Assembly: GCF_010731855.1 (NCBI RefSeq)
Contig: NZ_AP022620.1
Span: 1,922,001 to 1,986,000 of the forward strand
DNA length: 64,000 nucleotides
From: Mycolicibacterium anyangense
GTDB lineage: Bacteria > Actinomycetota > Actinomycetes > Mycobacteriales > Mycobacteriaceae
Direction of reading: 5' to 3'
The position numbers and the translations under genes are program-made. The notes under the pieces were generated by a model that worked only from the letters and a program-made list of their open reading frames with translations, did no database searches and had not been told where the DNA came from. Below are positions 40,907-61,607 of the stretch, piece by piece; the first letter of the stretch is position 1; each line of letters starts with the position of its first letter.

Positions 40907-41311
<405 letters not shown>

Positions 41312-54796: not shown

Positions 54797-56089
54797 TCAC
54801 GCGGCCGGGCGGATCCGATCCGAACGTGCCGACCGCCCTGCCGAGGCCGCTGACGCGGGCGCCTTGGCGGCCTTGGTGGTGGATGGGCTTGCGGTCCGGC
54901 TGCCGGCGGCCGCCGTCCTCGGCGTGATCGGGACGGCGGCGGCACCGCGCACCTTTGCGGCGCCGGCCGTTCGCGCTGACGTGAGCCGCGTGCTCGCGGT
55001 CGATACCGGTGCGCCCGCGAGTGCCGGCGGGCGGATCGCGTCGGCGATCGCGGATGCGACGTCACCCACTACCTTGCCCGGTAGCACTGCGGTCGCTTTC
55101 ACTACCGCGCCCGCACCCTCGACCACCTTCTGCAGCACCAGAGCCGGATCCCCGGCCGCCATCGCGAGCTGGACGTCGTAGACCGCGCGCGATCCCGCCA
55201 GGGCCCAATCGCGATAATCGACGAACAGCGCGGTCGCCAGCGACGGGTGTTCTGGAACCGCAATTCCATTCCAACTGACCAATGTCCATCCGTCGGTCGG
55301 ATTACCTTTGACGACAACGATTCCGGTGTTTCCCAGGAAATTCTTGTTGACGAAGTCGAGGCTCGGCGGATTCTTGACGTTCATCATCACCCAGCTGGTG
55401 ATGGTGCCGTTGTGCGAGAACGCAAGTGGGTTGGCATCGGGGTTGAGAGCATCGGCGGTGAAGGACGAGTACTTGTTCATCTCGTCCCAGTAGATCTTCT
55501 GGATCGCCGCGTTGGTGCGGTCGAAGAATGCGATCCCGTTGACATCGCCGTTCGCCAACGTCGGTGTGGGGCTTTGCGGCATCGGAGTCAGCCAGCTGGC
55601 AAGGCGCCACCGGTCCTGGACGTCGACGTAGGACGTCATTCGCGGGTCGACGAATGTGCCGTCGGGGTTCGTCAGGGTGCTGGCCAATTCATTGGCACCG
55701 GCGCGGACCTCGAGCAGTCCGTTCAGAGCCACCGGCGTCAGCCCGGCGTACTGCGCGTAGGGTGCGGCGGTCTGTGCGGTTCGGATCAGGGTTGAGGTGT
55801 AGATGGCGTCGTAGGCCACACCTTTGGCGATCAGAGTGTCCTTGAGCGCCTGCGCCTGGGTTTGCCCCAGCGGACTCAGATCCGGCCCGGGCGGGATCGA
55901 GCCGAGGATGTTCTCCACGTTCTCCATCGACTGGGCGTGCCGAACGAAGGTCAACGTCATGGACGTGGCCGCCCAGGCCGCTGCGGAGGAGGCGACGAGC
56001 ATGCCGACGGCGAGGACGACGACACACAATCGCTTCAGCCAACAGGAGAACGCACGAATCGGACGGTCACGTACAGCGAGAACAGACAT
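54797..56089 (-). CDS. Secreted histidine-phosphatase-family protein
   Basis: A protein of 430 residues with a signal peptide (LCVVVLAVGMLVASSAAAWA, cleavage near residue 42), then a histidine phosphatase domain opening with TLTFVRHAQSMENVENILG (RHG motif as RHA) and the second histidine in LAFSHNGTITSWVMM. From about residue 330 the chain becomes a low-complexity Ala/Pro/Ser/Thr/Arg tail, possibly embedding it in the envelope. The ATG at 56089 is preferred over GTG 56095 because of a G-rich site. The RHG glycine is an alanine, seen in some family members. The substrate is unknown. Confidence 0.88.
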   Translation of the reverse strand: MSVLAVRDRPIRAFSCWLKRLCVVVLAVGMLVASSAAAWAATSMTLTFVRHAQSMENVENILGSIPPGPDLSPLGQTQAQALKDTLIAKGVAYDAIYTSTLIRTAQTAAPYAQYAGLTPVALNGLLEVRAGANELASTLTNPDGTFVDPRMTSYVDVQDRWRLASWLTPMPQSPTPTLANGDVNGIAFFDRTNAAIQKIYWDEMNKYSSFTADALNPDANPLAFSHNGTITSWVMMNVKNPPSLDFVNKNFLGNTGIVVVKGNPTDGWTLVSWNGIAVPEHPSLATALFVDYRDWALAGSRAVYDVQLAMAAGDPALVLQKVVEGAGAVVKATAVLPGKVVGDVASAIADAIRPPALAGAPVSTASTRLTSARTAGAAKVRGAAAVPITPRTAAAGSRTASPSTTKAAKAPASAASAGRSARSDRIRPAA

Positions 56090-56222
56090 CGACACCCCCG
56101 TAGTCGTCAGCCAAGACGCACTGGTTCTACCAGTTTGTCCGGTCGGGTGCAGACTAACGGACCGAGGAGCCGAGCGGAAGGACTCCCTGCGACGGTTCGA
56201 GGAAGTCCGGCTAGACGTATCG

Positions 56223-57797
56223 CTAGGCCAACGTGGTCTTCATCAGCGCCACGTTGTAGTCACCCCACAGCGACAGGTTCCAGTAGATGTCCTGGCCGGT
56301 GGACAGCGGATCCATCATGGGCGCGTACAACCCCGGGTATTGCAGCGAATTGACCAGCGGGGTGGCCGAGGACCAGGTGCCCTGCGGGGAATCGGAGGTC
56401 CGCATCACCACGGTGCCGGTGCCGTCGGAGTACATCGCGACGTACTTGCTGAGATAGGTGTTGTACTGCACCGACATCTCACTGACGTGTCCGTTGGGTC
56501 CGCCGACGCCGAAGATGCCCGCCACCCAGCTGCCGAAGAACAGACCGAGCTGTCCCAGGAAGCCGCCGGCGTTCTGGTTCTGCGCGGTCGGCGGCAGGAT
56601 CGGCACCGCGGCCGACGGGTCGTTGACGGTCCACGAGGAGCCGTTCCAGTACTCGTACTTGGTGAGATCGAGAATGTTGGCGTCGGCGACCCGGGAGACG
56701 TAGGCCGAACCCATCCGGCCCGACGGCGTGCCGTAGGAGTAGACGTACCCGGCGTCCGGTGAGTCGGCGGGCGGCTTGACGAACGCGCCCTGCTGAAAGT
56801 TCTGGTTGCCGTAGACGAATGGCCGGCTGGAGCGCAGCCAGCTGGCCGCCCGGACGGTCTGCGGTGCGACGGTCCAGTTCTGCCCGTTGTCGTCGGAGTA
56901 GGCGATCGCCGAGTAGTTGGTGGTCCACTGCCCGCCGTAGTCCCAGGAGCGCACCGACATGAAGTTGACGTATTGCCTTGCGCCGTAGGCATTGTCGTAG
57001 GGCACCGAGATCGCCGCGGTGGGGATGACGGTCACCTCCGAGCCGAAGATACCCAGATAGCCGGGATTGCCCCGGATCACCTGCTTGGACATTCCCGGCG
57101 AACTCAACGGCGAGCCGGCGAAGGGATCGGTGAGCGAGCCGGTGGCGAACGTCCGGGTGATCGGGTCGGTGGTGCGCAGCAGGACGTTGGAACGCCACAC
57201 CCCGCTCTGATTGGGCCCGCTGAAGGTGTCACCGAAGATCATCAGCACCTGATGCTGGTCGCCGGTCATTCCGTTGTCCCACATGATTCCGACATCGGTG
57301 CCGTAGATGCCGAATCTCGCGGGTGTGCCGTTGCCGGGCCCGGTGACCCAGCCGACCTTGGTGGTGACCGGTGCGGCGGTGACCGCCGTCTGGGAGGTGG
57401 TGGCAGTGGGCGCCGCGGTGGTGGTGGTCTCCGGTTCGCGGCCGGTCCAGGATGCCAGTGCCACCAACGCAGAAGGATCGACGGGGTCCACCGGGCGGTT
57501 GGGGGCGAATCTGCCGGTACTCCGAGAGACGTTGACCGGCAACGCCTTCGGCGTGCTCACCGGGTCAGTGGCGGCCGCCGCTCTGGCTGCGGTCGGGACA
57601 CCGGCCGCCGGGCTCACCGGCTTGGCCGCCTTGGGCGTGGCCGCGCCATGTTGACTGCGTGGTGAGTGCGCGGTCGAGGACGTGCTAGCCGTCGAATCAC
57701 CGGGATCCGCCGAGGCGACCCCGGTGGCCACAGCGGTACCCACCCCCAGGGCTATCGCCAGCCCACCGATTCGACAGACGTACGCCGCTGTTCGCAT
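56223..57797 (-). CDS. Secreted DUF4185 protein, candidate endo-D-arabinanase (GH183 family)
   Basis: A 524-residue secreted protein with a signal peptide (IGGLAIALGVGTAVATGVASA), then a 110-residue Ala/Pro/Thr linker, then a DUF4185 beta-propeller domain from about residue 145 to the end. Markers are the opening VTGPGNGTPARFGIYGTDVG, with an acidic residue in TDVGIMWDNG, IFGDTFSGPNQSG, SWDYGGQWTTNYSAIAYSDDNG and MYSDGTGTVVMRTSDSPQGTW. DUF4185 proteins were shown in mycobacteria to be endo-D-arabinanases acting on arabinogalactan or lipoarabinomannan. That activity is therefore the best guess. The start is at 57797 (MRTAAYVCRIGG). Confidence 0.88.
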   Translation of the reverse strand: MRTAAYVCRIGGLAIALGVGTAVATGVASADPGDSTASTSSTAHSPRSQHGAATPKAAKPVSPAAGVPTAARAAAATDPVSTPKALPVNVSRSTGRFAPNRPVDPVDPSALVALASWTGREPETTTTAAPTATTSQTAVTAAPVTTKVGWVTGPGNGTPARFGIYGTDVGIMWDNGMTGDQHQVLMIFGDTFSGPNQSGVWRSNVLLRTTDPITRTFATGSLTDPFAGSPLSSPGMSKQVIRGNPGYLGIFGSEVTVIPTAAISVPYDNAYGARQYVNFMSVRSWDYGGQWTTNYSAIAYSDDNGQNWTVAPQTVRAASWLRSSRPFVYGNQNFQQGAFVKPPADSPDAGYVYSYGTPSGRMGSAYVSRVADANILDLTKYEYWNGSSWTVNDPSAAVPILPPTAQNQNAGGFLGQLGLFFGSWVAGIFGVGGPNGHVSEMSVQYNTYLSKYVAMYSDGTGTVVMRTSDSPQGTWSSATPLVNSLQYPGLYAPMMDPLSTGQDIYWNLSLWGDYNVALMKTTLA

Positions 57798-57967
57798 CCA
57801 TGCCCCCCTTGATCGCCCGTCCAGTATTGGCCACCAGGGTCACGATCCGGACGTGATTGTCGAACGGGTCAGAAACGCTGATGTCCGCTGATAGGAGGCA
57901 GGCCGGGGCGGCGCAGTATTCATTTCCAGCCGCTCGAGAAGAAGCGGACCAAGACTTGGAGGACACC

Positions 57968-58204
57968 ATGACCACACAGATTTCCAAGCGCGCCGCAGGA
58001 ATTCTCGCCAGTGCCGTCGCGGCTGGCGGACTGGCCCTGGGCCTCGGCTTCGCACCCACCGCCGGCGCCGCCGACAACTGCGGCTACGGCTACCACCTGG
58101 CCGGCGGCAGCTGCATCGCCAATGCGCCCGGTCCCGGCGCCCAGGTCGATCCCGGCCATCCCAACTGCTGGATCAACGACAACGGCGACCAGCGCTGCTA
58201 CTAA
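57968..58204 (+). CDS. Tiny secreted four-cysteine protein, copy 1 of 3
   Basis: A 78-residue precursor. Residues 1-35 are a signal peptide (MTTQISKRAAGILASAVAAG then LALGLGFAPTAGAA). The mature part of about 43 residues is DNCGYGYHLAGGSC, a Pro/Gly stretch NAPGPGAQVDPGHP and NCWINDNGDQRCY. Four cysteines could make two disulfides. The ATG at 57968 has GGAGGA seven to eight bases upstream. Two paralogues follow in the same direction. I do not recognise the family; the NCWINDNGDxRCY motif is its clearest signature. Copy 1 has two extra residues (PGHP) before that motif and ends at the tyrosine. Confidence 0.85.
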   Translation: MTTQISKRAAGILASAVAAGGLALGLGFAPTAGAADNCGYGYHLAGGSCIANAPGPGAQVDPGHPNCWINDNGDQRCY

Positions 58205-58230
58205 CCCTCCCCCACATCGAATATCGAATC

Positions 58231-58263
58231 CATCCCGCCCGGGCCGTCGGCCCGGGCGGGATG
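58231..58263 (+). terminator. Perfect 15-bp hairpin after copy 1
   Basis: CATCCCGCCCGGGCC (58231-58245), loop GTC, and GGCCCGGGCGGGATG (58249-58263) form a perfect stem 27 nt after the stop of copy 1. No T-run follows, so this is the stem-only terminator type common in mycobacteria. Confidence 0.75.
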
Positions 58264-58407
58264 ACGGCTGTCCGAATCACGGGTGCGGAACCTATTGATC
58301 TGCTGCGCACGCGGCGAATTCCCCCCGCGCCGCGCACGCTGCAGAACTACACTCAACCGTCTCGCGCCTCGCTCGGCCCGAGCGGGGGAAATTCGGGGAG
58401 GACAATC

Positions 58408-58644
58408 ATGACTGGATCAATCCGTAAACGGACGGCAGTGTTCTTCGCAGGCGCCATGGCAGCCGGCGCGCTGACGGCGGGAATGAACTTCGCGCCCAAC
58501 GCCGGCGCCGCCGACGGCTGCGGTATCGGATTTCATCTCGAGAACGGCAACTGCGTGGTGAACATCCCCGGCCCGGGTGCTCGCTTCGTCAGTCCCAACT
58601 GTTGGATCAACGACAACGGCGACGAGCGCTGCTACGCACCGTAA
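58408..58644 (+). CDS. Tiny secreted four-cysteine protein, copy 2 of 3
   Basis: A 78-residue precursor with a signal peptide (AVFFAGAMAAGALTAGMNFAPNAGAA) and the mature part DGCGIGFHLENGNC, VVNIPGPGARFVSP, NCWINDNGDERCYAP. All four cysteines and the C-terminal motif are shared with copies 1 and 3, while the signal peptide and middle have drifted. The ATG at 58408 follows GGGGAGGA at a good distance. A TACACT hexamer at 58348-58353 may be its -10 element. It is followed by a hairpin with a T-run, so it has its own transcript. Confidence 0.85.
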   Translation: MTGSIRKRTAVFFAGAMAAGALTAGMNFAPNAGAADGCGIGFHLENGNCVVNIPGPGARFVSPNCWINDNGDERCYAP

Positions 58645-58666
58645 CTCGACGGCATTGTCACACCAC

Positions 58667-58704
58667 TCCCGCTCGGACCGCACAGTCCGAGCGGGATTTT
58701 CTTT
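58667..58704 (+). terminator. Intrinsic terminator after copy 2
   Basis: TCCCGCTCGGAC (58667-58678) and GTCCGAGCGGGA (58685-58696) form a perfect 12-bp stem with a 6-nt loop, followed by TTTTCTTT. This is a classical L-shaped intrinsic terminator, uncommon in mycobacteria. Confidence 0.85.
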
Positions 58705-58732
58705 AAAAGTACTGCGCTACAATACTTTTAAA
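58702..58732. promoter_or_regulatory. AT-rich palindrome and -10 element between copies 2 and 3
   Basis: TTTAAAAGTA (58702-58711) and TACTTTTAAA (58723-58732) are perfect 10-base arms around an 11-nt spacer. The spacer and right arm contain TACAAT (58718-58723), a good -10 hexamer for copy 3. Such an AT-rich inverted repeat is striking in this GC-rich DNA and looks like a regulator site lying over a promoter. It would give a 5' leader of about 185 nt. The rest of the 271-nt gap 58645-58915 shows no gene. Confidence 0.5.
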
Positions 58733-58915
58733 CATCCAGGACGGCCAGTGGCGGTCGCCGCCACCCAGGCCGTCGTCCACCGATCGTAGGACACCGGATT
58801 CCCTCCAGATCCGGTCCGGTTGGCGGACATACACCGGCTGTGGGCCAGCGCACTATTCATCTCGAGCCCGCTCATCCCGAGCCCGCCCACAAGACATAGA
58901 ACAACTGGAGACATC

Positions 58916-59155
58916 ATGACGACCACGATCATCAAGCGTGCGGTAGGAATTCTCACCGGCACCTTCGCCGCCGGCGCACTCGCCCTGGGCATCGGCATGG
59001 CCCCGACAGCCAGCGCGGCCGACGGCTGTGGCTACGGCTACCACCTCGACGGGGGCACCTGCGTGCTGAACGCGCCTGGCCCCGGCGCCCACTTCATCAG
59101 CCCGAACTGCTGGATCAACGACAACGGCGACGAGCGCTGCTACGCCGGTAGCTGA
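58916..59155 (+). CDS. Tiny secreted four-cysteine protein, copy 3 of 3
   Basis: A 79-residue precursor: signal peptide (RAVGILTGTFAAGALALGIG then MAPTASAA) and mature part DGCGYGYHLDGGTC, VLNAPGPGAHFISP, NCWINDNGDERCYAGS. It is closest to copy 1 in the CGYGYHL segment and to copy 2 in NGDERCY, which suits duplication followed by drift. The ATG at 58916 follows CTGGAG at about six bases. A perfect hairpin lies between it and the convergent transporter gene. Confidence 0.85.
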   Translation: MTTTIIKRAVGILTGTFAAGALALGIGMAPTASAADGCGYGYHLDGGTCVLNAPGPGAHFISPNCWINDNGDERCYAGS

Positions 59156-59170
59156 TCCACCGAACACGCC

Positions 59171-59204
59171 CGAGCCCGCCCGTGACGATCACCGGGCGGG
59201 CTCG
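59171..59204. terminator. Bidirectional hairpin between copy 3 and the MFS gene
   Basis: CGAGCCCGCCCG (59171-59182) and CGGGCGGGCTCG (59193-59204) form a perfect 12-bp stem with a 10-nt loop. It lies between two converging genes and can serve both. Confidence 0.75.
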
Positions 59205-61008: not shown

Positions 61009-61083
61009 TGGTGGGCGCGGAGGGTTTCGAACCCCCGACCGCTGGTGTGTAAAACCAGAGCTCTACCACTGAGCTACACGCCC
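61009..61083 (-). tRNA. tRNA-Val (anticodon UAC), CCA encoded
   Basis: On the minus strand the gene runs GGGCGTGTAGCTCAGTGG, with the D-loop GCTCAGTGGTAGAGC, anticodon stem CTGGT and loop TTTACAC (anticodon TAC at its centre), the T-arm GGTTCGAAACC and the 3' acceptor CGCGCCC followed by A and CCA. The acceptor stem pairs fully, with one G-U pair. The UAC anticodon reads valine GUA and related codons. Confidence 0.97.
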
Positions 61084-61130: not shown

Positions 61131-61607
61131 TCAGGCGTCCACCGCAGCGAGCGCCTCGGTCCACACCGACTGGTCGCGGGCCTCGCCGGGCTGCTTGCAT
61201 TCGGCGAACCGGATCACTCCCGCGCGGTCGATCACGAAGGTTCCGCGGTTGGGATAGCCGGCGTCGTCGTTGAACACGCCGTAGGCCTGGGCCACCGCGC
61301 CGTGCGGCCAGAAATCGGACAGCACGGGAAACAGGAATCCACTCTGGACGGCCCAGATCTTGTGCGTGGGCGGTGGCCCCACCGAGATGGCCAGCGTGGC
61401 GGTGTCGTCGTTCTCGAACTCGGGTAGGTGATCGCGAACGTAGTCGAGTTCGCCCTGACAGATTCCGGTGAACGCGAGTGGGAAGAACACCAGCAGCACG
61501 TTCTTGCGCCCGCGGAAATCGCTGAGTGTGACGGGCTGGCCGTTCTGGTCCTTGAGGGTGAAGTCCGGCGCCGCAGAACCGATCAGACCCTCGGCAGGGT
61601 CCGTCAC
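61131..61607 (-). CDS. ahpE: Peroxiredoxin AhpE
   Basis: A 158-residue thiol peroxidase of the AhpE type that reduces peroxides and peroxynitrite. The peroxidatic Cys50 is in [12 protein letters not shown] (the PxxxT/SxxC motif) and the conserved Arg is in [12 protein letters not shown]. tuberculosis AhpE is a one-Cys enzyme; this protein has a second cysteine, Cys137 in FAECKQPGE, where I recall methionine in M. tuberculosis. The start is GTG 61607, overlapping the stop of the DUF3052 gene (GTGA), so the two are co-translated. Confidence 0.95.

What the first reader, a model, noticed from the sequence alone, without database searches (positions are those of the whole stretch)
57968..59155. 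Array of three tiny secreted four-cysteine proteins of an unrecognised family
Three tandem genes of 237-240 nt encode signal peptide plus a mature part of about 43 residues with four fixed cysteines and the motif NCWINDNGDxRCY. Each copy has its own Shine-Dalgarno and a following hairpin, so each is separately expressed. Signal peptides diverge while the C-terminal motif is nearly invariant, which points to selection on the mature peptide. Small disulfide-rich secreted proteins are often toxins, signals, inhibitors or envelope ligands. They lie beside a secreted DUF4185 glycan hydrolase candidate and a secreted phosphatase, all likely acting outside the membrane.
Basis: partly seen in the sequence, partly recalled or inferred. 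Interest (0 to 1): 0.75.

Follow-up and report, generated by a model that had tools for sequence, protein, structure and literature searches.

The report
Tandem secreted four-cysteine mini-proteins, unknown role
Three side-by-side genes in an environmental mycobacterium encode tiny exported proteins, each predicted to fold into two small cysteine-bearing hairpins, of a kind found here in full length only in some mycobacteria and in Legionella; they are real genes of a named but uncharacterised family, and their role is still unknown.

Summary
In detail: three genes (57968-58204, 58408-58644, 58916-59155) encode a signal peptide plus a 43-44 residue mature part with four fixed cysteines. pN/pS between copies is 0.40-0.42. 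'Unrecognised' is too strong: NCBIfam NF047412 (GCG_CRPN) covers the first half, though only copy 3 passes its cut-off, and NCBI already gives that name to relatives. Full-length forms appeared in 17 of 297 mycobacterial genomes (1-3 copies) and in 63 of 140 genomes of Legionella's order (three of them weak or partial). Other sampled Actinomycetota and Pseudomonadota gave none full-length. AlphaFold2 gives a confident two-hairpin mature domain; no solved fold matched. The divergent neighbour is a DUF4185/GH183 arabinanase homologue; close orthologues occur in 6 of 8 array genomes against 1 of 90 others, not phylogeny-corrected. Best guess: an exported, non-enzymatic envelope-glycan ligand; this is inference with low confidence. 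Stronger selection on the mature part was not supported.

The parts
57968..58204 (+). copy 1 (c1), 78 aa: signal peptide + 43-residue mature four-cysteine mini-protein, GHP-insert type
   Evidence: GHP-insert copies come first in the arrays that hold both types
58408..58644 (+). copy 2 (c2), 78 aa; NF047412 23.6 bits (cut-off 24)
   Evidence: own clade with the L042 and L044 middle copies, support 1.0
58916..59155 (+). copy 3 (c3), 79 aa; NF047412 24.6 bits (over cut-off 24)
57958..57962 (+). Shine-Dalgarno of c1 (GGAGG)
   Evidence: read by eye
58395..58401 (+). Shine-Dalgarno of c2 (GGGGAGG)
   Evidence: read by eye
58906..58910 (+). Shine-Dalgarno of c3 (TGGAG)
   Evidence: read by eye
58825..58858 (+). 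conserved bipartite upstream element of c3, GGACATAC-N15-GCGCACTATTC, possible promoter/operator; the only exact match of the pattern in the genome
57911..57921 (+). downstream half of the same element before c1 (GCGCAGTATTC); upstream half not recognisable
58348..58353 (+). TACACT, -10-like hexamer before c2, which lacks the bipartite element
   Evidence: read by eye; inference
58231..58263 (+). GC-rich inverted repeat after c1
   Evidence: read by eye
58667..58696 (+). terminator-like hairpin with T-run after c2
59171..59204 (+). GC-rich inverted repeat after c3
   Evidence: read by eye
56223..57797 (-). divergent neighbour: DUF4185 / GH183 endo-D-arabinanase homologue with a signal-like N-terminus
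   Evidence: Pfam PF13810 313.5 bits; PDB 8hhv endo-alpha-D-arabinanase E 5.4e-43; family activity in PMC10115798 (passages)
54797..56095 (-). secreted histidine-phosphatase-superfamily protein (His_Phos_1); no match in the 26 related loci, so probably not part of the system

Best explanation
Shown: three paralogous, separately started, export-type mini-proteins made of a GCG-type cysteine half followed by a CW-type cysteine half, one family with a mostly single-copy Legionella protein, and sharing only the first half with alphaproteobacterial-type GCG_CRPN proteins. Inferred mechanism: after Sec export and signal cleavage the 4.5 kDa acidic domain folds with disulfides C38-C49 and C65-C75 and works outside the membrane as a non-enzymatic binding module, presenting the conserved residues H43 (near-invariant), N52, W66 and R74 (invariant in the alignment) to a ligand. 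In these mycobacteria the ligand is most likely the arabinan-containing envelope glycans that the divergent GH183 endo-D-arabinanase cuts, so the peptides would guide, protect against or mop up after that enzyme. The paralogues are kept as separate types with partly different upstream signals, which suggests division of labour.
For: C, G, N, W, R and frame conserved over 73 sequences. AlphaFold2 blocks 41-79 have mean pLDDT 91, 93, 93, 89, with short strands at 42-45/48-51 and 65-67/73-75; the Legionella protein gives strands at the matching places at lower confidence (blocks 80-87). Disulfide pairing is inferred because relatives hold either one or two cysteine pairs: of 30 loci fetched, 20 non-Legionella-type rows could be read, 13 with two cysteines and 7 with four; a Rhizobium copy has two. 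A DUF4185 orthologue lies upstream on the opposite strand in 13 of the 17 mycobacterial loci (in L009 and L015 it is 1.6 and 3.6 kb off, not adjacent). Close orthologues occur in 6 of 8 array genomes against 1 of 90 others. The DUF4185 protein aligns with a solved endo-alpha-D-arabinanase, including the TDxGIMWD and FGDTF stretches. c1 and c3 types are orthologous across four genomes, c2 across three.
Against: No binding, expression or localisation data. The GH183 link is not obligatory: L011 (M. litorale F4) keeps the array without that gene in the stretch held, L004, L019 and L025 lack it there too (the L004 genome has it at its second locus, L014), and G093 has the gene with no copy in the 1.5 kb flanks searched. 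Species carrying both may simply be one clade; no correction was made. The Legionella loci have no constant neighbour: a GH5 cellulase-type gene in 4 of 10 loci, others unrelated, and Legionella has no arabinogalactan (established knowledge), so the glycan reading would need another ligand there. Disulfide pairing was not read from a model. No solved fold matches.
Confidence: 0.27

Rival explanations
1. Host-interface peptide: a secreted factor used by amoeba-associated bacteria (environmental mycobacteria and Legionella) against or inside protozoa, spread between them by horizontal transfer.
For: In a one-pattern scan of one genome per species all 26 confirmed loci were Mycobacterium/Mycobacteriaceae (17) or Legionella (9); no full-length hit elsewhere in the samples; coexistence in one amoeba and gene sharing between the two groups are reported in PMC3325273 (passages).
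Against: No expression or secretion data; no secretion-system signal tested; most Legionella and mycobacterial genes neighbouring it differ; direction and timing of transfer are not resolved by a tree of such short proteins, which I rooted on Legionella by choice.
Confidence: 0.2
2. Inhibitor or regulator of the neighbouring GH183 arabinanase or of an extracytoplasmic protease.
For: Small, four-cysteine, acidic, divergent from an exported hydrolase homologue.
Against: Array copies exist without the GH183 gene in the stretches held of L011, L004, L019 and L025; Legionella has no constant hydrolase partner.
Confidence: 0.15
3. Antibacterial peptide (bacteriocin-like toxin) array.
For: Tandem paralogues, signal peptides, four cysteines.
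Against: No obvious immunity gene among the four neighbours checked with Pfam (no dedicated search was made); purifying selection; mostly single-copy retention in Legionella's order; no excess of replacement change in the GCG or CW halves (the linker alone has pN/pS 0.82).
Confidence: 0.1
4. Metal or redox (thiol) protein of the envelope.
For: Four cysteines and a near-invariant histidine; in L004 FeoA/FeoB-like genes (recognised by eye, not by a family search) lie about 3 kb upstream.
Against: Cysteines come as one or two pairs in the 20 relatives read, as for disulfide hairpins; no metal-related gene among the four window neighbours checked; the L004 genes are two genes away from the peptide and were not seen in the other five loci read by eye.
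Confidence: 0.1

Closest known systems
NCBIfam NF047412, GCG_CRPN prefix-to-repeats domain-containing proteins
   Same: Position just after the signal peptide and pattern GCGxGxH...C..N; 62 of 73 aligned members match at E up to 0.1; NCBI already names some mycobacterial and Legionella relatives so.
   Different: The model covers only 23 residues; c1 does not match and c2 is just below cut-off. No repetitive His/Trp/Arg/Pro-rich tail; instead a second cysteine half and at most a few residues more.
Legionella GCG_CRPN protein
   Same: Full-length match with both cysteine pairs and invariant C, N, C, W, R, C; 63 of 140 genomes of its order, 62 with one match and one with two.
   Different: About 35-49% identical to c3; tail of the type CWRNxWGxLRCYR in place of CWINDNGDERCY; no match to the window's neighbouring genes in the 9 Legionella loci.
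   Same: Same first half and a second C-x10-C pair with Trp.
   Different: Long Val/Pro/Arg spacer; the second half is not matched by the full-length profile.
GH183 (DUF4185) endo-D-arabinanases
   Same: The divergent neighbour belongs here; activity of the family is published (PMC10115798, passages and section 18).
   Different: It is the neighbour, not the mini-proteins.

Membership tests
NCBIfam NF047412 (GCG_CRPN) | Model score at or above 24 bits | tested here: inconclusive
   c3 24.6 (met), c2 23.6 (not met), c1 no match at E up to 1
NCBIfam NF047412 (GCG_CRPN) | Cysteine module GCGxGxH...C..N directly after the signal peptide | tested here: met
   alignment of 73 sequences; c1 has NCG for GCG; signal peptide read by eye
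NCBIfam NF047412 (GCG_CRPN) | Module is a prefix to a repetitive tail (taken from the family's name) | tested here: not met
   26-27 residues follow N52, no repeat, a second cysteine pair
Any Pfam-A family | Match over gathering score | tested here: not met
   0 families for each of the three at E up to 1; only scattered weak matches, at most 4 members per family, among 73 relatives
GH183 / DUF4185 (neighbour) | PF13810 over cut-off | tested here: met
   313.5 bits, cut-off 39.5
GH183 / DUF4185 (neighbour) | Two catalytic aspartates | tested here: inconclusive
   TDVGIMWD and FGDTF align with 8hhv; residue numbers of PMC10115798 section 18 were not mapped one by one
GH183 / DUF4185 (neighbour) | Endo-D-arabinanase activity | not testable with these tools
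Bacteriocin / toxin array | Cognate immunity gene and killing activity | tested here: inconclusive
   No obvious immunity gene among four neighbours checked with Pfam; no dedicated search; activity not testable

The most novel reading that the evidence does not exclude
A compact two-hairpin secreted peptide is shared across phyla by two amoeba-dwelling lineages, Legionella and environmental mycobacteria, passed by horizontal transfer, duplicated in mycobacteria beside an arabinanase, and serves at the bacterium-protozoan or bacterium-envelope interface.
Probability: 0.18. Interest if true: 0.72.

Novelty: new variant of a known kind. Interest (0 to 1): 0.47.

Why it matters
It describes the two-hairpin form of a widespread but uncharacterised family, shows which species to study (three-copy, two-copy, one-copy and zero-copy relatives exist), ties it to mycobacterial D-arabinan turnover by gene neighbourhood, and gives an unusual full-length link between mycobacteria and Legionella that can be tested.

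Tried and rejected

Limits of counts: one search scored only 7994 candidates; one search used a single peptide pattern; only part of the first-look candidates per genome was scored. In one search, 21 of 297 genomes passed E 0.001; I count 17 and dropped G153, G208, G257 and G285, whose only matches scored 22-25 bits over part of the profile (lesser fragments in G018, G175 and G288 are not counted as copies). In one search, 4 of 396 passed; G496 (23.9 bits, profile 7-45) was dropped. In one search, 63 of 140 passed, three of them weak or partial (G1038, G1046, G1062). Of the 30 loci, 20 besides the Legionella one (L144) were read in a frame that shows the module; the other 9 were not.

Full report
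What is there. The window lies in a 5.70 Mb single-contig genome, a Mycobacterium in the GTDB sense (inferred: genomes marked 'same genus' share contig lengths with Mycobacterium records, as listed). Three + strand genes, c1 57968-58204, c2 58408-58644 and c3 58916-59155, encode 78, 78 and 79 residues. Identity of c2 and c3 to c1 is 62% and 72%, and 42 alignment columns are invariant, among them four cysteines and NCWINDNGD.RCY. Mature parts, if cut after AxAA, are 43, 43 and 44 residues, 4.5-4.6 kDa, pI 4.3-4.5. No signal-peptide predictor was available; the signal is read from the sequence. GC at third positions is 0.77-0.89.

Are they genes? Yes. The pN/pS between copies is 0.40-0.42 over the whole gene. 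The alignment profile finds exactly these three places in the genome. Relatives keep frame, length and cysteines in other species, with a few decayed copies noted below. An earlier run on 33 sequences gave 0.45 (signal) and 0.49 (mature); for the window's three pairs alone the mature part is lower than the signal (0.28-0.42 against 0.44-0.55).

Family. No Pfam family matches. NCBIfam NF047412, a 23-residue model named GCG_CRPN prefix-to-repeats, matches c3 at 24.6 bits (cut-off 24), c2 at 23.6, and c1 not at all; 62 of 73 relatives match it at E up to 0.1. NCBI names some mycobacterial and Legionella relatives after it. So the family is named; the model's name is in none of the open-access papers held. 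No solved structure is related by sequence.

Distribution. Of 297 mycobacterial genomes, 17 have convincing members (85 bits or more): 8 with one copy, 5 with two, 4 with three (four genomes with only 22-25 bit matches are dropped). In one of the four three-copy genomes (G155) the copies lie at two loci. Of 396 Actinomycetota genomes 3 had full matches, all in this genus; a fourth, G496, matched weakly and partially. A scan of one genome per species with one peptide pattern confirmed 26 loci, 17 Mycobacterium/Mycobacteriaceae and 9 Legionella. In the order of a Legionella genome (Legionellales by recall; the tool names no group) 63 of 140 genomes match, 62 of them with one match, three of the 63 weak or partial; in its class 3 of 274. 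In 289 genomes of its phylum the full-length profile matched 14, of which only the Legionella genome matched over the full length; the other 13 matched only the signal-plus-GCG part, ending at column 57 or before. NF047412 alone matched 25 of the 289. Of 30 loci fetched there, 20 besides the Legionella one could be read: 13 have only the first cysteine pair, 7 have a second pair, in several as C-x10-C after a long spacer. The Rhizobium plasmid copy that I looked at (one of three Rhizobium records hit) likewise shares only the first half. Thus the compact full-length protein is, in these samples, a Mycobacterium plus Legionella form.

Paralogue types. A protein tree (rooted by me on Legionella) groups c1 and c3 with their counterparts in L005, L042 and L044 (supports 0.74 and 0.94), and c2 with those in L042 and L044 (1.0). 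The array was therefore probably made before these species split and its members have been kept apart. Decayed copies exist: a truncated copy in L015, and in L018 (P0027) a copy whose signal peptide is replaced by unrelated sequence.

Expression signals. A bipartite element GGACA(G/T)AC - N15 - GCGCA(C/G)NATTC, whose second half begins 56-79 nt before the start codon, is found before 27 of 32 copies tested; the spacer is 15 in 26 and 16 in one. I drew the pattern by eye from the same sequences and allowed 1 and 2 mismatches, so the fixed spacing rather than the count is the evidence. It is missing before the c2 types, where TACACT or TAAACT stands at that place, before one L011 copy, and before c1 of the window only the second half is recognisable. 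In the window's genome the exact pattern occurs only before c3. The simple sigma-70 scan found no promoter. A short stem follows in the leader: 87.6% of cells paired against 28.8-49.1% for slid versions, but only 2 of 8 pairs show changes on both sides and RNAalifold predicts none.

Neighbourhood. The divergent gene 56223-57797 is DUF4185 (313.5 bits) and aligns with the solved endo-alpha-D-arabinanase 8hhv at E 5.4e-43. DUF4185 was shown to be an endo-D-arabinofuranase family, GH183, active on mycobacterial arabinogalactan and lipoarabinomannan (PMC10115798; abstract and passages seen, section 18 read). Of the 17 mycobacterial loci a DUF4185 orthologue lies upstream on the opposite strand in 13 (L005-L010, L012-L018) and is absent from the stretch held in 4 (L004, L011, L019, L025); in L009 and L015 it is 1.6 and 3.6 kb from the peptide gene. 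The L004 genome carries it at its other locus, L014. Across 98 genomes 7 have a DUF4185 gene scoring over 700 bits; 6 of these 7 are among the 8 array genomes of that set and one (G093) is not; Fisher p 1.8e-7, which ignores that the species are related. DUF4185 genes as such are common: 97 of the 98 genomes have some match. No copy is visible in the flanks of the G093 gene. I assume that the 98 genomes are among the 297, as the handles suggest. The secreted phosphatase at 54797-56095 has no match in the 26 loci. In Legionella the neighbours vary; a GH5 cellulase-type gene (Pfam-tested in L021, the others by clustering with it) is next in 4 of 10 loci.

How it probably works. The shown part is export-type mini-proteins with a conserved, confidently predicted two-hairpin layout. 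The inferred part is that they bind something outside the cell with the conserved H, N, W and R, and that in mycobacteria this is connected with D-arabinan turnover. I rate the mechanism at 0.27. Rivals (host interface, enzyme inhibitor, antibacterial peptide, metal site) are listed with their tests.

Novel reading. PMC3325273 (passages) reports other genes that group mycobacteria with Legionella and shows both living together in one amoeba for five days. A full-length peptide shared by just these two lineages in the samples fits transfer of that kind. The tree cannot give direction, and sampling with the profile was limited to Actinomycetota and Pseudomonadota, apart from the one-pattern scan.

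Noticed in passing
window 40908-41304 (-): Bacterial RNase P class A RNA, 291.7 bits.
   Followed up: no
window 61012-61083 (-): tRNA match, 69.6 bits, close to the AhpE-like gene 61131-61607 (label recalled).
   Followed up: no
L018 5917-6150 (Mycobacterium sp. ENV421): A copy whose signal peptide is replaced by unrelated sequence reading from near the DUF4185 start; mature part intact, probably no longer exported.
   Followed up: partly
L015 4969-5265: Truncated second copy, cysteine module broken off after GCGYG: array copies decay.
   Followed up: partly
upstream of 27 of 32 array copies, e.g. window 58825-58858: Rigid bipartite element GGACA(G/T)AC-N15-GCGCA(C/G)NATTC, in many copies preceded by a CCGCTNGGCGG-like palindrome (by eye); regulator unknown.
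   Followed up: partly
L021, L022, L023, L028: GH5 cellulase-type gene directly downstream of the Legionella homologue in one subgroup.
   Followed up: partly
CW half (residues 64-76) of 30 mycobacterial copies: Low synonymous change (pS 0.16 against 0.43 in the GCG half): codon bias or gene conversion.
   Followed up: no
L004 577-2831: FeoA/FeoB-like genes (recognised by eye) about 3 kb upstream of the solitary copy in Mycolicibacterium sp. CH28.
   Followed up: no
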